Source: Burkholderiales bacterium (GTDB lineage: Bacteria > Pseudomonadota > Gammaproteobacteria > Burkholderiales > Thiobacteraceae). From it: DNA of 34,614 bases. Shown one piece after another: positions 2,347-14,686 of the stretch (the first letter of the stretch is position 1; each line of letters starts with the position of its first letter). The stretch lies in assembly GCA_018781585.1 (NCBI GenBank), contig JADMJT010000026.1, positions 1 through 34,614 on the forward strand, given 5' to 3'. The position numbers and the translations under genes were made by a program. The notes below the pieces were generated by a model, which had not been told where the DNA came from, searched no databases, and saw only the letters and a program-made list of their open reading frames with translations.

Positions 2347-2987
2347 GTTCGTTCCTCGGTTAGCGTCGGCCGTGCGAAAATCTCGCTGCCGTGTTGTTCA
2401 TAATAGCGCAAGGCTTTATGCACTGCTTTGACCACCGCGCGCGGGGTGATGGTGGCGCCGGTCATGTAATCGAAATTGCCGCCGTCCTTTTTGACTTTCC
2501 ATGCGCGGCTATCGGGTTGGACCAGCGAGGCATGATCAAATTGCTTGATCCAGTCGCTTTTGGCGGCATCGATATAGTCGCCCAGGCCCGGCGTTTCAAT
2601 GTGAGAGACCACGCGCACACCGGCGAGCTCGCCATTGGTGCGGATCGCGATCAAGAGCGTGATCTTGCCGCTGTAACCATCTGGCGCGATCGCTTCCAGC
2701 ACCAAGGCCGAGGGCGCGCCATTCAAACGCGCGCGGTAAGCGGCGGTAGGCCGTGTCGTACCGAGTTCTGGGGTGGGGGGGAGCATCGTCACATCATTCA
2801 CGATCGCATTGTCGTAGAGCGCATTTGGCAGCGCCTGGTTGATCAGGGCAAGCTTGGCTTGTTCCTCGCTTTTAGCGATATTGTCTTTGGTGATCTCGAA
2901 AGTGTAAGCAAGCAGTCCCGTGCCGAGCACGGTAAATGCGATCAGCGTCAGCGCCGTGCGAATCGAATTTTTCGCGGCCGTGATCAT
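2343..2987 (-). CDS. rsxG: Rsx/Rnf electron transport complex subunit G (covalent FMN)
   Basis: This 214-residue protein has one N-terminal membrane anchor (about residues 10-30) and a soluble FMN-binding domain. The flavinylation motif is TGATITP at about residues 176-182, where FMN is attached to the threonine (T179) through a phosphoester bond. The region VVSHIETPGLGDYID (about 127-140) is also typical of RnfG/NqrC. The domain faces the periplasm in characterised complexes. Length is normal. The start overlaps the rsxD stop and the stop overlaps the rsxE start, each by 4 bp. Confidence 0.96.
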   Translation of the reverse strand: MITAAKNSIRTALTLIAFTVLGTGLLAYTFEITKDNIAKSEEQAKLALINQALPNALYDNAIVNDVTMLPPTPELGTTRPTAAYRARLNGAPSALVLEAIAPDGYSGKITLLIAIRTNGELAGVRVVSHIETPGLGDYIDAAKSDWIKQFDHASLVQPDSRAWKVKKDGGNFDYMTGATITPRAVVKAVHKALRYYEQHGSEIFARPTLTEERT

Positions 2988-4009
2988 GGCTTGTCCTGAT
3001 CCTTAACATGCCCGAATACGCGCGGCTGAGTGTAGGCATCGATTAGCGGCACGCACATATTCAGGATTAATACCGCGAACGCCACGCCATCCGGATAGCC
3101 ACCCCAGGTGCGGATGAGATAGATCAGCGCGCCGATCGCCGCACCGAAAATCAGCTTGCCCTTGGGGGTGGTGGCGCCAGTGACGGGATCGGTGGCAATG
3201 AAGAATGCGCCAAGCAGCGCGCCCCCAGTGGCCAAGTGGAACCACGGCGCGGCATAGCGCGCCGCATCGTAAGCGTGAAAGCCAAACGCGAGCAGCGCCA
3301 GTGTGGCGAGAAACGCCACGGGGATGTGCCAAGTAATGATGCGCTGCTGCAAGAGATAAACCCCACCCGCGAGATAAGCCAGCGCGATCAATTCAGCGCC
3401 TTTGCCGCCGACATAGCCAAATACGGGCATTGGAGTGATTTCACTTGCGGGCCGGCCGAGCAAGAGTTGGGTGCGCAGCGTGTCGAGCGGCGTGGCCAGG
3501 GTGAGCGCGTCCAACTTCATGCCGGCCGGCAACTCGCCACCGAAGATAAAGCGCAGTGTGCCGCTGAGCGATAAGTGCGCATGCGCCAAGGTGTCGACCA
3601 CCGGCCATTGTGTCATGTGCGCGGGGAAAGAGATCAACATCACCGCGTAGCCCACCATCGCGGGGTTGAATAAATTATTACCCAAGCCGCCATACAAATG
3701 TTTCGCCACCACGATGGCAAACAGCGTGGCGATCACGATCAGCCACCAAGGGGCTAAGGGCGGCATGGACAACGCCAGCAGCCAGGCCGTGACCAGTGCG
3801 CTGCCATCCAGTAAAAAGGGTTTGATGGGGAGCTTACGCAGGCGCAGCATCGCCGCTTCCGCGCCGATCGCCGTCACGCTGGCCAGCACAATGCTCACCA
3901 AAATCGCCGGGCCGAAATAGAGCTGATAAATCGCGGTCGCCGGCAAAAGCGCGAACAGCACTTTTAGCATGACGCTGCTGACACTGGCACTGTTGGAGAC
4001 GTAGGCCAT
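2984..4009 (-). CDS. rsxD: Rsx/Rnf electron transport complex subunit D (covalent FMN)
   Basis: This 341-residue integral membrane protein belongs to the RnfD/NqrB family. It has several membrane helices and the conserved segment DGSALVTAWLLALSMPP (about 68-84). The motif TLATPLDTL near residue 173 is the site where FMN is attached to a threonine. NNLFNPAMVGYA (about 111-122) and TGATTPKGKLIFGA are further family blocks. The ATG at 4009 is only 8 bp from the edge of a long palindromic repeat (4017-4149), and no good Shine-Dalgarno sequence is visible before it. Translation may therefore rely on coupling or on sequence inside the repeat. It overlaps rsxG by 4 bp. Confidence 0.96.
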   Translation of the reverse strand: MAYVSNSASVSSVMLKVLFALLPATAIYQLYFGPAILVSIVLASVTAIGAEAAMLRLRKLPIKPFLLDGSALVTAWLLALSMPPLAPWWLIVIATLFAIVVAKHLYGGLGNNLFNPAMVGYAVMLISFPAHMTQWPVVDTLAHAHLSLSGTLRFIFGGELPAGMKLDALTLATPLDTLRTQLLLGRPASEITPMPVFGYVGGKGAELIALAYLAGGVYLLQQRIITWHIPVAFLATLALLAFGFHAYDAARYAAPWFHLATGGALLGAFFIATDPVTGATTPKGKLIFGAAIGALIYLIRTWGGYPDGVAFAVLILNMCVPLIDAYTQPRVFGHVKDQDKP

Positions 4010-11143: not shown

Positions 11144-11158
11144 CCGCGCATTTTACCA
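11144..11158 (-). promoter_or_regulatory. Candidate extended -10 promoter of pyrD implying a leaderless mRNA
   Basis: On the minus strand, TGG-TAAAAT (11158-11150) matches an extended -10 element. Only six bases (GCGCGG) separate it from the pyrD ATG at 11143, so the predicted start point is at or beside the A of the ATG. No convincing -35 is seen at the right spacing. This is a pattern match only. Confidence 0.3.
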
Positions 11159-11159
11159 T

Positions 11160-11188
11160 TTGCGCGGCGAGTCGGCTTTCGCTATGTT
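11160..11188 (+). promoter_or_regulatory. Candidate sigma70 promoter of the DUF3460-like gene
   Basis: TTGCGC (11160-11165), a 17-bp spacer and TATGTT (11183-11188) lie at the proper distance before the ATG at 11216. TTGAGG at 11202-11207 serves as a ribosome-binding site. It stands back to back with the pyrD promoter candidate in the 72-bp divergent gap. Confidence 0.4.
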
Positions 11189-11215
11189 ACGTCTCTTACC
11201 CTTGAGGATCACGCC

Positions 11216-11449
11216 ATGAAAAACGAACCAGGCTACGCTTATGAGTCCGAAATCGACGCCTTGATGCGTAAAATGCGCCAAGACCCCAAGATAGAAGCAG
11301 AGCGCCAGCGCAATTGGATGCACTGGTGGCAGCCGGCGCCGGCAAAGCGCGATGCGAGCACGCCAACCGAGGACGTGGGGGCGCAAAATATTGACCTGGA
11401 TATGGCGTATGTGAGCCGTAAATCGCAACCGCAAGGCGGACGGAAGTAG
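11216..11449 (+). CDS. small DUF3460-like protein
   Basis: This 77-residue soluble protein begins MKNEPGYAYESEIDALMRKM. The pattern YESEIxxLMxxMxxDPKIEAERQRNWMHWW followed by a later NIDLD resembles the betaproteobacterial DUF3460 family, whose members read roughly YESDxTxFLxxLKxxxPxLEExQRxGRxxWWDKxPIDLD. Here a 20-residue insertion separates the tryptophans from IDLD. The start is supported by TTGAGG nine bases upstream. It has no signal peptide or membrane segment, and its function is unknown. It is followed by a stem-loop and then by the flavocytochrome gene on the same strand. Confidence 0.7.
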   Translation: MKNEPGYAYESEIDALMRKMRQDPKIEAERQRNWMHWWQPAPAKRDASTPTEDVGAQNIDLDMAYVSRKSQPQGGRK

Positions 11450-11472
11450 CGCAGTCATTATTTATCGAAGGG

Positions 11473-11492
11473 GGAAGCGCAAGTTTGCTTCC
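11473..11492 (+). other. Stem-loop GGAAGC...GCTTCC between the DUF3460-like and flavocytochrome genes
   Basis: Six-base-pair arms at 11473-11478 and 11487-11492 enclose an 8-nt loop. No T-run follows, so it is not a classic terminator. It contains the TTG at 11485 that could serve as an upstream start for the next gene; if the hairpin forms, the ATG at 11527 is favoured. Confidence 0.4.
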
Positions 11493-11526
11493 TTGTCAGC
11501 CCAACTTGTTTCGCGAATCGAGCGTC

Positions 11527-12798
11527 ATGATCATGCGCATCCTGCTGACATTTCCCCGGTTTTATCTTGCGTTGGTCATGGCGCTTGCCGGCTTGCCTGC
11601 GCTGCTGCAAATGCCCGCCGTACCGCTTACTTTATCCGGCATGGGCGTGCTGACAGGGTGGCTCGGCTGTGGTGCGTTGGCGGCTAGTCTCATGCTGATG
11701 GTACGCGAGCCGGCCATAGCATCCTGCTTCGGCGGGCTTGATCGCATGTATCGCTGGCATCATCTCTTTGGTGTGGCGGGGTATGTGTTGTTGTTGTCGC
11801 ACCCGCTTTTTTTAGCGGGGCAAGCCCTTCCCGCTCATCCTCAATCGGCCTGGCAAATCATCTCACCAGGGTCCCCAACTTGGTCAGGAATGCTCGGCTG
11901 GGGGGCATTACTCGGATTGATGCTCGGTCTTGGCGCTACCTTCGCCACACGTTTGCGTTATAGCGTGTGGCGGCCCTTGCATGCCCTGCTGAGCGTGGGG
12001 GTGTTGCTCGGTATAGCGCATGTACTGCTGCTCGGGGGGCTTACCGCCGCTGCTTGGGTAGTGATGCTTCCGATCGTGCTGGCGCTGACCTGGCGTATGC
12101 TGCGCGTAGATCGCGGGCAGGGTGCCCGGCCTTATGAAGTGAGTTCGGCAAGCTGCTTGTCGGATGAGATTGTTGAAGTGTCGTTGCGACCCCTGGCGCA
12201 ACCGCTTGCGGCTGTACCCGGGCAATTCGTCATGGCGGCATTTTTTGAAGGGCCACACTACCGCGGTTGCGGCGAATATCACCCTTATACAATCAGCGGC
12301 GCGATACCTGATGGCGGCTTGCGGCTGAACATTAAAGCCCTAGGCGACTGCACGCGCACGATGCAATCGCTGGAAGCGGGGGTGGCGGCACGCATCCAGG
12401 GGCCGTTCGGCGAATTTTTTGCCAGTCGAAACGCTTCTCCAGAAGTGTGGATTGCCGGCGGTATTGGGGTAACACCCTTCCTGGCGCAACTGCGCCTGGG
12501 TGAGGTGACCCGGCCGACGGAATTCATCTATGTGTATCGCACCGCTCAGGATGCGTGTTATCTGGATGAGATGGAGCGTTATGCCGCGACGCATCCTTTG
12601 CTGCACTTTCAGCCGCTCGTTTCGCAAAATGATTTGGTTCCGCTGTATGCCATGCTAGCCAAGGTGACGGACTTGCCGGCCCGGCAAGCCTATCTGTGCG
12701 GCCCCCGGCTCTTCGTGGCCGCAGTGAGCGCATGGCTGAAACAGCACGGTATGCGCGAGCAGTCCATTCATTTTGAAAATTTTGAGTTTCGATCATGA
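11527..12798 (+). CDS. membrane flavocytochrome of the ferric reductase/NADPH-oxidase type
   Basis: From this ATG the protein has 423 residues. Residues 1-192 form about six membrane helices with two bis-His heme b sites: H78/H79 (YRWHHLFG) with H92 (LLSHPLF), and H152 (WRPLHALL) with H165 (GIAHVLL), spaced 13-14 residues apart. Residues 200-300 form an FAD domain (HPYTIS at 252-257, GPFGEFF at 292-298). Residues 305-423 form an NAD(P) domain (WIAGGIGVTPF at 308-318, YLCGPRLF at 389-396, ending HFENFEF). It should move electrons from NAD(P)H across the membrane; the acceptor (ferric iron, oxygen or a partner protein) cannot be read. An in-frame TTG at 11485 would add 14 residues. The stop overlaps the cytochrome b5 gene by 4 bp, which points to that protein as a redox partner. 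Confidence 0.88.
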   Translation: MIMRILLTFPRFYLALVMALAGLPALLQMPAVPLTLSGMGVLTGWLGCGALAASLMLMVREPAIASCFGGLDRMYRWHHLFGVAGYVLLLSHPLFLAGQALPAHPQSAWQIISPGSPTWSGMLGWGALLGLMLGLGATFATRLRYSVWRPLHALLSVGVLLGIAHVLLLGGLTAAAWVVMLPIVLALTWRMLRVDRGQGARPYEVSSASCLSDEIVEVSLRPLAQPLAAVPGQFVMAAFFEGPHYRGCGEYHPYTISGAIPDGGLRLNIKALGDCTRTMQSLEAGVAARIQGPFGEFFASRNASPEVWIAGGIGVTPFLAQLRLGEVTRPTEFIYVYRTAQDACYLDEMERYAATHPLLHFQPLVSQNDLVPLYAMLAKVTDLPARQAYLCGPRLFVAAVSAWLKQHGMREQSIHFENFEFRS

Positions 12799-13157
12799 AG
12801 CGCATCTATATCGTTGCAACGCTCCTTTTCTGGTTGGGGGTGACCGCCATTTGGGCAGGCAGCCATTGGATGCCGGCGACCCAAGAAGTCGCTGCGCTAT
12901 CCCCAACCAAAGCCTATTCACTGCAAGCGGTAGCTGCGCATAACCGTGCCGATAATTGCTGGATGGCCATTAACGGCCAGGTCTATGATCTATCCGCATA
13001 TATCCCGCAGCATCCAAGCGCCCCGGAAGTGATTGTGGCTTGGTGCGGCAAGGAAGCGACCACCGCCTATATGACCAAAAATCGCGGCAGGCCACACTCG
13101 CCGTATGCGACTGAATTGCTACAGCGCTACAGAATAGGTGTGTTGGATATGCGTTAG
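12795..13157 (+). CDS. membrane-anchored cytochrome b5-domain protein
   Basis: This 120-residue protein has an N-terminal hydrophobic segment (about 4-22, IYIVATLLFWLGVTAIWAG), a signal peptide or anchor placing the rest in the periplasm. Residues 41-118 match a cytochrome b5 fold: YSLQAVAAHNRADNCWMAINGQVYDLSAYIPQHP and a later HSPYATELLQRYRIGVL. The likely axial heme ligands are H73 and H101. The usual HPGG motif reads HPSA here. C55 sits in the common DNCW position and C84 is extra. The ATG overlaps the flavocytochrome stop (ATGA). I infer that it accepts electrons from the flavocytochrome on the outer face of the membrane. Confidence 0.85.
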   Translation: MKRIYIVATLLFWLGVTAIWAGSHWMPATQEVAALSPTKAYSLQAVAAHNRADNCWMAINGQVYDLSAYIPQHPSAPEVIVAWCGKEATTAYMTKNRGRPHSPYATELLQRYRIGVLDMR

Positions 13158-13177: not shown

Positions 13178-13776
13178 TTAAGTCCAGATCATTTTCCCTG
13201 CAGCAACGATGAGCACCACGCCCAACAGGCGCTTCAATAGCGCAGGCGCCAACCGTCGCAGCGCGAGTTCCGAACCCACCAATCCCCCCGCTAACGCCAC
13301 CAGCACGAAAATCCATAGCACCTCCGGCCACGCCGCGTGGGCGCTAGCGGTATAGCCTGCCAAGCCCGCGATCGAATTCACTAGAATAAATGCCGCCGCG
13401 AGCGCAGCGGACTCGCGCATCGTCGTCCAATGCAGCATCAGCAAAATCGGGCTCAAAAAAATCCCGCCGCCGACCCCGGTTAGTCCGGACAGTAAGCCGA
13501 TACCGGCGCCCAAGAGCAGGGCAGCGGAAAAGGGCGGCGTGCGGCGAACCGTATCGTCTTGGTATTCGGCGAACATGCGTATCGCCGCAAGCAATAGCGC
13601 GATGCCGGCGATGGTGCGGTAAGTGGTATCGGTGGGCTTCCATGCGCCGCCGCCGAGATAAGCCGCGGGAATCGAGCCCAAGGCAAACGGCCAGAACAAG
13701 CTGAATTTGAAATAGCCCGCGCGATGAAGATCAGCGCGAACAGGCCGAGTGTTTGAGGGGAATCGAAGTGATCCAT
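13178..13776 (-). pseudogene. TauE/SafE-family permease, internally deleted and frameshifted
   Basis: From about 13723 to 13178 the minus strand encodes RAGYFKFSLFWPFALGSIPAAYLGG and onward through GIGLLSGLTGVGGGIFLSP to VLLIVAAGKMIWT-like ends, which is the C-terminal two thirds of a TauE/SafE permease. The expected N-terminus, MDHFDSPQTLGLFALIFIA, starts at 13776 but is in a different frame. It joins the downstream part near 13715-13725 with roughly 55-60 family residues missing, including the first Gly-rich helix pair. The longest uninterrupted frame (13178-13699, TTG start, 173 residues) lacks the N-terminal third. The break lies at a GCGCG stretch, which suggests deletion between short repeats. 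An assembly error is the alternative. Confidence 0.75.
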
Positions 13777-13865
13777 TTGATACAAATCGTATCAGCGATG
13801 TAATTTAAAAACACCCTTGGCAAACCCGCGTAGAATACTGGCTCGCATTAATTAGGAATTTCCGC

Positions 13866-14135
13866 ATGAAAAAGACCGATATAGAGAAAAACAAAGGACT
13901 CAAAATCAGCGCCCGCATGAGTCATGCAGGCACCCCCGCGCGCTTCGGTAAAGCAGCGGGCGCGGTTCCAGACCGGCGCGAGCAGCGTAAGCTCGATCAG
14001 GCGCAGGGTTTGGTGCCATTCGCGGTCAAGCTGAATGGCGATTTGGTGCAACAAATTCAGGCCCTGGCGCAGGCACGTCAGGAGGGGCTGAACGAAGTGG
14101 TGGCCGAGTTGCTGAAAAAAGGGCTTGAAGGCTAA
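13866..14135 (+). CDS. conserved hypothetical protein, small basic, possible DNA-binding C-terminus
   Basis: This 89-residue protein begins MKKTDIEKNKGLKISARMSHAGTPARFG. The N-terminal half is basic and probably disordered. The C-terminal half, VPFAVKLNGDLVQQIQALAQARQEGLNEVVAELLKKGLE, has the strand-helix-helix look of ribbon-helix-helix proteins. I recall similar small proteins in other Beta- and Gammaproteobacteria, but no function. AGGAATTTCCGC before the ATG provides a ribosome-binding site. It ends 11 bp before the peroxiredoxin gene and is probably co-transcribed with it. Confidence 0.75.
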   Translation: MKKTDIEKNKGLKISARMSHAGTPARFGKAAGAVPDRREQRKLDQAQGLVPFAVKLNGDLVQQIQALAQARQEGLNEVVAELLKKGLEG

Positions 14136-14146
14136 GGCGGCTAATA

Positions 14147-14686
14147 ATGAAATATTGGGTGCTCATCATCACCGCAGCCGCCGTGCTGGCATTCATCATG
14201 GTGCGCGCCAGTCACGCCGCGAACACGCCCCAGCCGGGACAAGCTGCGCCCGATTTCAACCTGCCGGATCAGAATGGCAAACAGCACCGGCTGGCCGATT
14301 ATCGCGGCAAATGGCTGGTGTTGTACTTCTACCCCAAAGACGACACGCCAGGCTGCATCAAACAGGCATGTGCGTTCCGCGATGATATTTTTACCCTGCG
14401 TAAAATGGGTGCGGAGGTGGTGGGCGTAAGTGTGGACGACACGGCTTCACACGCAGAATTCGCCAAAAAATACAGCTTGCCGTTCCCGCTGCTGGCCGAC
14501 CAGCAAGGTGCTACGGCGGAGCGTTACGGCTCTCTCACCAAGCTCCTCATCATGAAATTCGCCAAGCGCAACACCTTCCTCATCGACCCCCAAGGCCTGG
14601 TCGCCAAGGTGTATCTATCCGCTGAGGCGGGGCGCAATTCAGAGCAGGTGATTGCGGATTTGACTGCGCTGCTGGCGGCGCGGTGA
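14147..14686 (+). CDS. Bcp/PrxQ-type peroxiredoxin with N-terminal membrane anchor or signal
   Basis: This 179-residue AhpC/TSA-family thiol peroxidase reduces H2O2 and organic hydroperoxides. Residues 1-25 (YWVLIITAAAVLAFIMVRASHAA) form a signal peptide or anchor that ordinary cytosolic Bcp lacks, so the enzyme probably acts in the periplasm. The thioredoxin-fold core has FYPKDDTPGCIKQACAFRD. Peroxidatic C70 and resolving C75 are five residues apart, as in atypical two-Cys PrxQ/Bcp enzymes. It follows the small hypothetical gene at 11 bp. Confidence 0.93.
   Translation: MKYWVLIITAAAVLAFIMVRASHAANTPQPGQAAPDFNLPDQNGKQHRLADYRGKWLVLYFYPKDDTPGCIKQACAFRDDIFTLRKMGAEVVGVSVDDTASHAEFAKKYSLPFPLLADQQGATAERYGSLTKLLIMKFAKRNTFLIDPQGLVAKVYLSAEAGRNSEQVIADLTALLAAR

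What the first reader, a model, noticed from the sequence alone, without database searches (positions are those of the whole stretch)
11473..13157. Translationally coupled membrane flavocytochrome and cytochrome b5-domain pair
A full-length ferric-reductase-type flavocytochrome (bis-His heme pairs H78/79-H92 and H152-H165, FAD and NAD(P) modules) overlaps by 4 bp a membrane-anchored cytochrome b5-domain protein. The geometry suggests a transmembrane relay from cytosolic NAD(P)H through two b hemes to a periplasmic b5 heme. I do not know a named system of this composition. It is the best candidate here for an uncharacterised redox module and could serve iron or metal reduction, repair of oxidised periplasmic proteins, or electron delivery to a b-type acceptor.
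Basis: partly seen in the sequence, partly recalled or inferred. Interest (0 to 1): 0.6.

Follow-up and report, generated by a model that had tools for sequence, protein, structure and literature searches.

The report
NOX-like reductase with tethered periplasmic b5
Two overlapping bacterial genes encode a membrane enzyme related to NADPH oxidases and a small haem protein tethered beside it outside the inner membrane; the pair is kept together across distant bacteria, which points to a dedicated wire carrying electrons out of the cell interior, although its final target is unknown.

Summary
Window 11527-12798(+) encodes a six-helix ferric-reductase/NOX-type flavocytochrome (closest solved structure: SpNOX). 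It overlaps by 4 bp 12795-13157(+), an N-terminally anchored cytochrome b5 whose closest solved relative is the periplasmic cytochrome b558 of Ectothiorhodospira. One detail is wrong: the haem ligands pair across helices (H78+H152, H92+H165), not within a helix. In all 34 pairs examined from Alpha-, Beta- and Gammaproteobacteria the reductase lies directly upstream of b5, and 33 overlap by 1-4 nt. The two families' distances correlate (r=0.89), and the paired reductases form one clade. Close relatives outside that clade sit beside membrane-anchored or multihaem cytochrome c instead. In 18 of 22 loci a third gene, a small secreted protein with no database family, lies just upstream; the window lacks it. 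Best reading: NAD(P)H to FAD to inner haem to outer haem to tethered periplasmic b5 to an unknown periplasmic acceptor. It is a new variant of the MsrPQ / MsrQ-like kind of electron-export system. I found no description of it in the papers I could search. Electron transfer, complex formation and the acceptor remain unproven.

The parts
11527..12798 (+). NOX/ferric-reductase-type flavocytochrome, 423 aa: six TM helices, FAD lobe, NAD(P) lobe
   Evidence: Pfam PF01794/PF08022/PF00175; SpNOX phmmer E 5e-24; AF2 pLDDT 86.6, Foldseek to SpNOX 8qt6 E 1.5e-21, TM 0.78/0.82. ORF can open at TTG 11485; ATG 11527 favoured by alignment.
11758..11760 (+). H78, TM3, predicted inner-haem ligand (with H152)
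   Evidence: invariant in 50/50 relatives; SpNOX H69+H129 (PMC11564096)
11800..11802 (+). H92, TM3, predicted outer-haem ligand (with H165)
   Evidence: invariant; SpNOX H83+H142
11980..11982 (+). H152, TM5, predicted inner-haem ligand
   Evidence: invariant
12019..12021 (+). H165, TM5, predicted outer-haem ligand
   Evidence: invariant
11803..11910 (+). outer end of TM3, periplasmic loop 3-4 and outer TM4 (residues 93-128): the stretch richest in residues specific to b5-paired reductases, candidate b5 docking face
   Evidence: 9 of the 20 paired-specific positions of the membrane half fall in these 36 residues, incl. W125 33/33 vs 0/17; post hoc, inference only
12795..12798 (+). ATGA stop/start overlap (translational coupling)
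   Evidence: same 1-4 nt overlap in 33 of 34 loci
12795..13157 (+). membrane-anchored cytochrome b5, 120 aa
   Evidence: PF00173 E 6.6e-17; 1cxy phmmer 94 bits (next 52); AF2 pLDDT 87.4, Foldseek to 1cxy E 4e-11, rmsd 1.0; only b5 domain found in the genome
12798..12866 (+). b5 residues 2-24, single N-terminal anchor helix, K/R on the cytosolic side
   Evidence: AF2 helix 2-24; positive-inside in 32/32 relatives
12909..13148 (+). b5 haem domain, residues 39-118, predicted periplasmic
13011..13013 (+). b5 H73, predicted haem ligand 1
   Evidence: nearly invariant, aligned with 1cxy
13095..13097 (+). b5 H101, predicted haem ligand 2
   Evidence: nearly invariant; lost in two Zoogloea (L024, L028)
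12957..12959 (+). b5 C55, predicted disulfide partner of C84 (13044-13046)
   Evidence: C55 and C84 invariant in 23/23 and present in 1cxy; disulfide in Ectothiorhodospira b5 stated in PMC8877833
11216..11449 (+). DUF3460-like small gene upstream; probably not part of the system
   Evidence: PF11943 E 0.0038, below cut-off

Best explanation
The two genes encode one electron-export module. A NOX-type flavocytochrome takes hydride from cytosolic NAD(P)H onto FAD and passes single electrons through an inner haem (H78/H152) and an outer haem (H92/H165) to the periplasmic face. There it reduces a dedicated b5 haem protein held beside it by an N-terminal membrane anchor. The flexible linker (residues about 25-38) lets b5 swing from the outer haem to a periplasmic acceptor, much as MsrQ feeds MsrP or as MsrQ-like proteins feed FMN-carrying domains. 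SHOWN here by sequence: the domains, the stop/start overlap, conserved adjacency, correlated divergence, clustering of the paired reductases on one branch, and a partner swap to cytochrome c in sister reductases. INFERRED: periplasmic facing of b5 (strong), complex formation and direction of flow (moderate). UNKNOWN: the final acceptor. My commitment is a protein redox partner in the periplasm rather than O2 or free iron.
For: Domains and folds. Reductase directly upstream of b5 in 34/34 loci examined, with a 1-4 nt overlap in 33. Mantel r 0.89 between reductase and b5 distances over 32 pairs, best of 5000 shuffles 0.27. Paired reductases form one side of a branch (SH-aLRT 94; 1 change against 14.4 shuffled). 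In an even sample of 369 genomes of the class, the 5 genomes with an anchored b5 are exactly the 5 whose best reductase hit is 1e-93 or better; genomes with weaker reductase hits gave no b5 match. Unpaired sister clade has cytochrome c next door (L059, L061, L063). b5 anchor positive-inside in 32/32. In the related order, b5 genes that lack a neighbouring reductase begin with a secretion-type signal instead of the paired type of anchor. In four genomes b5 continues into a C-terminal domain with a TGAT motif of the [S/T]GA[S/T] flavinylation type. SpNOX reduces cytochrome c directly, probably from its exposed outer haem (PMC11564096).
Against: No biochemical test and no complex model (the structure tool folds single chains only). 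The FMN_bind call is below Pfam's cut-off (16.8 vs 22 bits). Two Zoogloea pairs have a b5 that lost one or both haem ligands, and it is the only copy found in those genomes, so the b5 haem is not always needed. No conserved gene identifies the acceptor; the window lacks the third gene found in most relatives. Clade-specific conservation at the outer face could be shared ancestry.
Confidence: 0.7

Rival explanations
1. The reductase is a bacterial NOX that makes superoxide/H2O2 in the periplasm, and b5 is a structural or assembly subunit, as p22phox is for NOX2; the b5 haem is not on the main path.
For: Reductase fold is SpNOX's, which reduces O2 (PMC5676040). b5 haem ligands are lost in two Zoogloea pairs while the reductase keeps its four His. 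Anchor and haem domain are always encoded together with the reductase in these loci.
Against: Haem ligands of b5 are kept in 21 of 23. Sister reductases carry a different haem protein, cytochrome c, in the same place, which a purely structural role does not predict. SpNOX's O2 site is unclear and its physiological acceptor unknown (PMC11564096, PMC11031084).
Confidence: 0.13
2. Assimilatory ferric or other metal reductase: the outer haem or b5 reduces Fe(III) chelates or Cu(II) in the periplasm for uptake.
For: Family name (PF01794); some MsrQ-like clusters carry the iron transporter VIT1 (PMC8238504).
Against: No neighbouring gene family other than the secreted protein recurs across lineages around the pairs; the neighbours were not all annotated. 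[quoted passage not shown]
Confidence: 0.1
3. Electrons run inwards: periplasmic b5 collects electrons from a periplasmic donor and the flavocytochrome makes NAD(P)H or feeds the cytosol.
For: Found in some sulfur/iron-associated lineages (Thioalkalivibrio, Gallionella).
Against: Also in heterotrophs (Zoogloea, Trinickia, Thauera, Dechloromonas); the characterised NOX electron path runs outwards (PMC11564096); typical b-haem potentials make NAD+ reduction uphill (established knowledge).
Confidence: 0.04
4. Chance neighbours or a simple operon of unrelated functions.
For: The window alone would allow it; only 1 of 7 same-genus genomes searched has the pair.
Against: 34/34 adjacency across three proteobacterial classes with coupled frames and r=0.89.
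Confidence: 0.02

Closest known systems
MsrPQ (YedYZ) of E. coli: FRD membrane subunit feeding a periplasmic protein
   Same: Six-helix haem FRD passes electrons to a dedicated periplasmic partner encoded next to it
   Different: MsrQ has no fused FAD/NAD(P) domain (fed by quinol or Fre); the partner is a molybdoenzyme, not b5
MsrQ-like flavinylation systems (Meheust et al. 2021, PMC8238504)
   Same: PF01794 protein, often with C-terminal NAD-binding domain, coupled to an extracytosolic redox carrier
   Different: Carrier there is an ApbE-flavinylated FMN domain, mostly in Actinobacteria; here a b5 haem domain in Proteobacteria. Four Thioalkalivibrio-type b5 proteins may combine both
SpNOX / bacterial NOX family (PMC5676040, PMC11564096, PMC11031084)
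   Same: Domain order, four His with the same spacing, fold
   Different: SpNOX has no known dedicated periplasmic haem partner and an unknown physiological acceptor
Cytochrome b558 of Ectothiorhodospira vacuolata (PDB 1cxy), a bacterial cytochrome b5 of unknown function
   Same: Haem domain about 49% identical, same two Cys and haem His, thought periplasmic (PMC8877833)
   Different: There it is a lone gene with a secretion-type signal between a sodium symporter-like gene and a polynucleotide-phosphorylase-like gene, with no reductase beside it (neighbours named from sequence by eye); here it is anchored and coupled to the reductase
NOX2-p22phox
   Same: NOX core with a small membrane partner
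   Different: p22phox has no haem domain and is unrelated in sequence (established knowledge, not tested)

Membership tests
FRD-FNR (NOX/FRE) flavocytochromes | FRD with two His on TM3 and two on TM5 at 13-14 residue spacing | tested here: met
   H78/H92 in helix 71-98, H152/H165 in helix 145-170
FRD-FNR (NOX/FRE) flavocytochromes | Fused C-terminal FAD and NAD(P) lobes | tested here: met
   PF08022, PF00175; SpNOX dehydrogenase fold
NOX (true oxidase) | Superoxide or H2O2 production | not testable with these tools
   needs enzyme assay
Cytochrome b5 family | b5 fold with two axial His | tested here: met
   PF00173, 1cxy rmsd 1.0, H73 and H101
Periplasmic (Ectothiorhodospira-type) bacterial b5 | Cys pair and export signal or anchor | tested here: met
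   C55/C84 invariant; N-terminal helix with positive-inside charge; disulfide itself not observed
MsrPQ | Partner is the molybdoenzyme MsrP; FRD without FNR | tested here: not met
   Reductase carries FNR; adjacent partner is b5
MsrQ-like flavinylation system | FMN-binding domain protein and apbE in the same cluster | tested here: not met
   No FMN_bind in the pair; the single apbE lies on another contig, C81. In relatives L121/L126-L128 an FMN_bind-like extension scores below cut-off
Assimilatory ferric reductase | Reduction of Fe(III) chelates; link to iron uptake | tested here: inconclusive
   No gene family recurs downstream across lineages, but neighbours were not all annotated; activity not testable

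The most novel reading that the evidence does not exclude
A previously undescribed proteobacterial envelope electron-export system: a clade of bacterial NOX homologues whose physiological acceptor is not O2 but a tethered periplasmic cytochrome b5, in most Betaproteobacteria examined with a third, familyless secreted protein that is either the terminal redox/metal partner or the adaptor to it. Related clades do the same with cytochrome c, and one lineage has b5 joined to an FMN-carrying domain. Periplasmic haem-protein reduction would then be a common job of bacterial NOX proteins.
Probability: 0.5. Interest if true: 0.7.

Novelty: new variant of a known kind. Interest (0 to 1): 0.55.

Why it matters
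What bacterial NOX homologues reduce in the cell is open: a 2024 paper states that MsrQ is to date the only prokaryotic FRD protein with a clearly identified physiological function (PMC11031084), and the function of the first bacterial cytochrome b5, known since 1999, is still listed as unknown (PMC8877833). A conserved, coupled pair joins the two orphans and makes both questions testable with one co-expression experiment. If the relay works, it adds a haem-carrier branch to the extracytosolic electron-transfer systems so far known with molybdoenzyme or flavin carriers.

Tried and rejected
Looked for the system on plasmids (none) and in viral contigs (none). Looked for a recurrent third partner downstream: none shared between lineages; a ParB-like protein (PF08857) follows b5 only in some Accumulibacter. 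Sought a natural reductase-b5 fusion for docking geometry: the one long hit (L045, 1164 aa) looks like a cytosolic flavoprotein-b5 fusion with no match to this reductase. The 101-aa minus-strand ORF 11153-11458 was rejected as antisense to a DUF3460-like gene. Literature: searches for b5 + ferric reductase / NOX / periplasm returned no description of the pair; subscription papers are not covered.

Full report
WHAT IS THERE. Window 11527-12798(+) is a 423-aa flavocytochrome: Ferric_reduct (PF01794), FAD_binding_8 (PF08022) and NAD_binding_1 (PF00175), all above Pfam's cut-offs. The best solved relative is Streptococcus pneumoniae NOX, 8qt6, E 5e-24. The AlphaFold2 model (pLDDT 86.6) has six membrane helices and matches SpNOX over the whole chain (E 1.5e-21, TM 0.78/0.82). 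It overlaps by 4 bp (ATGA) with 12795-13157(+), a 120-aa cytochrome b5 with one N-terminal helix. The b5 half is not a generic b5. The Ectothiorhodospira vacuolata cytochrome b558 structure 1cxy scores 94 bits against 52 for the next, and the model superposes at 1.0 A.

LIGANDS AND TOPOLOGY. H78, H92, H152 and H165 are invariant in 50 of 50 relatives. In SpNOX the inner haem is held by H69+H129 and the outer by H83+H142, one His from TM3 and one from TM5 each (PMC11564096). The b5 ligands are H73 and H101, and two Cys (C55, C84) are invariant. Both Cys are also in 1cxy, for which a disulfide and a signal peptide are reported (PMC8877833). In 32 of 32 paired b5 proteins the residues before the anchor helix carry net positive charge, as expected for an N-in, domain-out protein.

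CONSERVED ADJACENCY. A scan of 84,980 genomes with the b5 alignment returned 26 loci. All 22 proteobacterial loci that include upstream sequence have the reductase directly upstream, each with stop and start overlapping by 1-4 nt. They include Accumulibacter, Zoogloea, Thauera, Gallionella, Dechloromonas, Trinickia, the alphaproteobacterium Rhodopila and Thioalkalivibrio. The three Patescibacteria loci, weaker b5 matches, have no reductase. Four more pairs came from an even sample of the class and seven from the order of Thioalkalivibrio. With the window, 34 of 34 are adjacent and 33 overlap; L125 has a small gap. In the class sample (369 genomes), 5 genomes have anchored b5, and the same 5 are the ones with reductase hits at 1e-93 or better; the next reductases, 1e-71 and weaker, sit in genomes with no b5 match. 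The pair is rare and patchy: 1 of 7 same-genus genomes has it.

JOINT DESCENT. Pairwise distances of reductase and b5 correlate at r=0.89 (best of 5000 shuffles 0.27). On the reductase tree, 33 b5-paired proteins are one side of a branch against 17 unpaired ones (SH-aLRT 94, one change). The residues specific to paired reductases gather at the outer end of TM3, the periplasmic loop 3-4 and outer TM4 (9 of 20 membrane-half positions in 36 residues; W125 33/33 against 0/17). This is where a periplasmic partner would dock, but the count was made after the fact and shared ancestry could contribute.

PARTNER SWAPS. In the unpaired relatives the gene downstream is often another haem protein. L061 and L063 have a membrane-anchored cytochrome c and L059 a class III multihaem c; these three form one starred clade. 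L068 is followed by a DUF1924 cytochrome c-like protein, and L055/L057 by cytochrome b561-like genes. So the membrane reductase seems to be matched to a haem acceptor clade by clade, which supports a redox rather than a purely structural role for b5.

EXTENSIONS OF THE SYSTEM. (a) In 18 of 22 loci a third gene, encoding a secreted protein of about 100 aa with two conserved Cys and conserved His/Met, lies just upstream of the reductase, usually with the same 4-bp overlap. It matches no Pfam or NCBIfam family. The window and its sister L018 lack it, and the window's genome has none. Paralogues in Accumulibacter lie near another membrane FNR protein and a cytochrome b561. (b) In four Thioalkalivibrio-type genomes b5 is extended by about 145 aa ending in DAFTGATLRGNKL or DGFTGATLRGNKL; in the one scanned, Pfam FMN_bind hits the end at 16.8 bits, below the cut-off of 22, and NCBIfam finds nothing. 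TGAT fits the [S/T]GA[S/T] flavinylation motif (PMC8238504). If confirmed, electrons would pass from b5 to a covalently bound periplasmic FMN. (c) In genomes of the Ectothiorhodospira type the b558 gene (97-100% identical to 1cxy) stands alone with a secretion-type signal and no reductase nearby. The anchored form thus goes with the reductase and the secreted form does not.

MECHANISM. Shown by sequence: parts, coupling, joint descent. Inferred: NAD(P)H to FAD to inner haem to outer haem to b5 to a periplasmic acceptor. SpNOX supports the last membrane step: its outer haem is unusually exposed and it reduces cytochrome c directly. The acceptor is unknown; I favour a protein partner over O2 or free iron because the carrier is a tethered one-electron haem protein, the sister systems use cytochrome c, and no downstream gene family, iron-related or other, recurs across lineages.

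CAVEATS. In two Zoogloea (L024, L028) b5 lost one or both ligands yet stays coupled, and no second copy was found; there b5 may be structural, which keeps the p22phox-like rival alive. No complex model or assay was possible. The literature search covered only open-licence papers.

KNOWN KIND. It works like MsrPQ and the MsrQ-like flavinylation systems but is a member of neither: its FRD carries its own dehydrogenase and its partner is b5. I rate it a new variant of a known kind.

Noticed in passing
L007:4419-4751, L015:4431-4739, L011:4407-4715 and 15 more loci: Small secreted protein family (PWxA..N..GW..M.PxER..HQ...R....Y..C..Y...H...M..RA...G..L.......C), no Pfam/NCBIfam match, just upstream of the reductase in 18 of 22 loci; paralogues elsewhere, some near a membrane FNR protein and cytochrome b561.
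   Followed up: partly
L121:5770-6579 and L126, L127, L128: b5 extended by a C-terminal domain ending in an FMN_bind-like TGAT motif (sub-threshold Pfam hit): possible haem-to-covalent-FMN periplasmic carrier.
   Followed up: partly
L059, L061, L063 (about 2770-3260 in reductase orientation): Sister NOX-type reductases followed by membrane-anchored or multihaem cytochrome c instead of b5.
   Followed up: partly
L024:6001-6372 and L028:6001-6372: Zoogloea b5 homologues that lost one or both haem His but stay coupled to an intact reductase; only copy found in the genome.
   Followed up: partly
L115-L117 (Ectothiorhodospira-type genomes): Classic cytochrome b558 gene is a lone secreted b5 without a reductase beside it; neighbours look like a sodium symporter and polynucleotide phosphorylase.
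   Followed up: yes
window 13178-13960 (-): TauE/SafE gene present only as its C-terminal two thirds (Pfam positions 66-237); upstream part is broken in all frames: truncated or frameshifted remnant.
   Followed up: partly
window 14147-14686 (+): PrxQ/AhpC-type peroxiredoxin with an N-terminal signal or anchor, preceded by a small ORF with a weak NCBIfam match; possible periplasmic peroxidase near the pair, adjacency not tested in relatives.
   Followed up: no
L045:4636-8130 (-): 1164-aa protein with a flavoprotein reductase-like region and a b5 domain, beside a nonribosomal peptide synthetase-like gene; a different, probably cytosolic b5 fusion.
   Followed up: no
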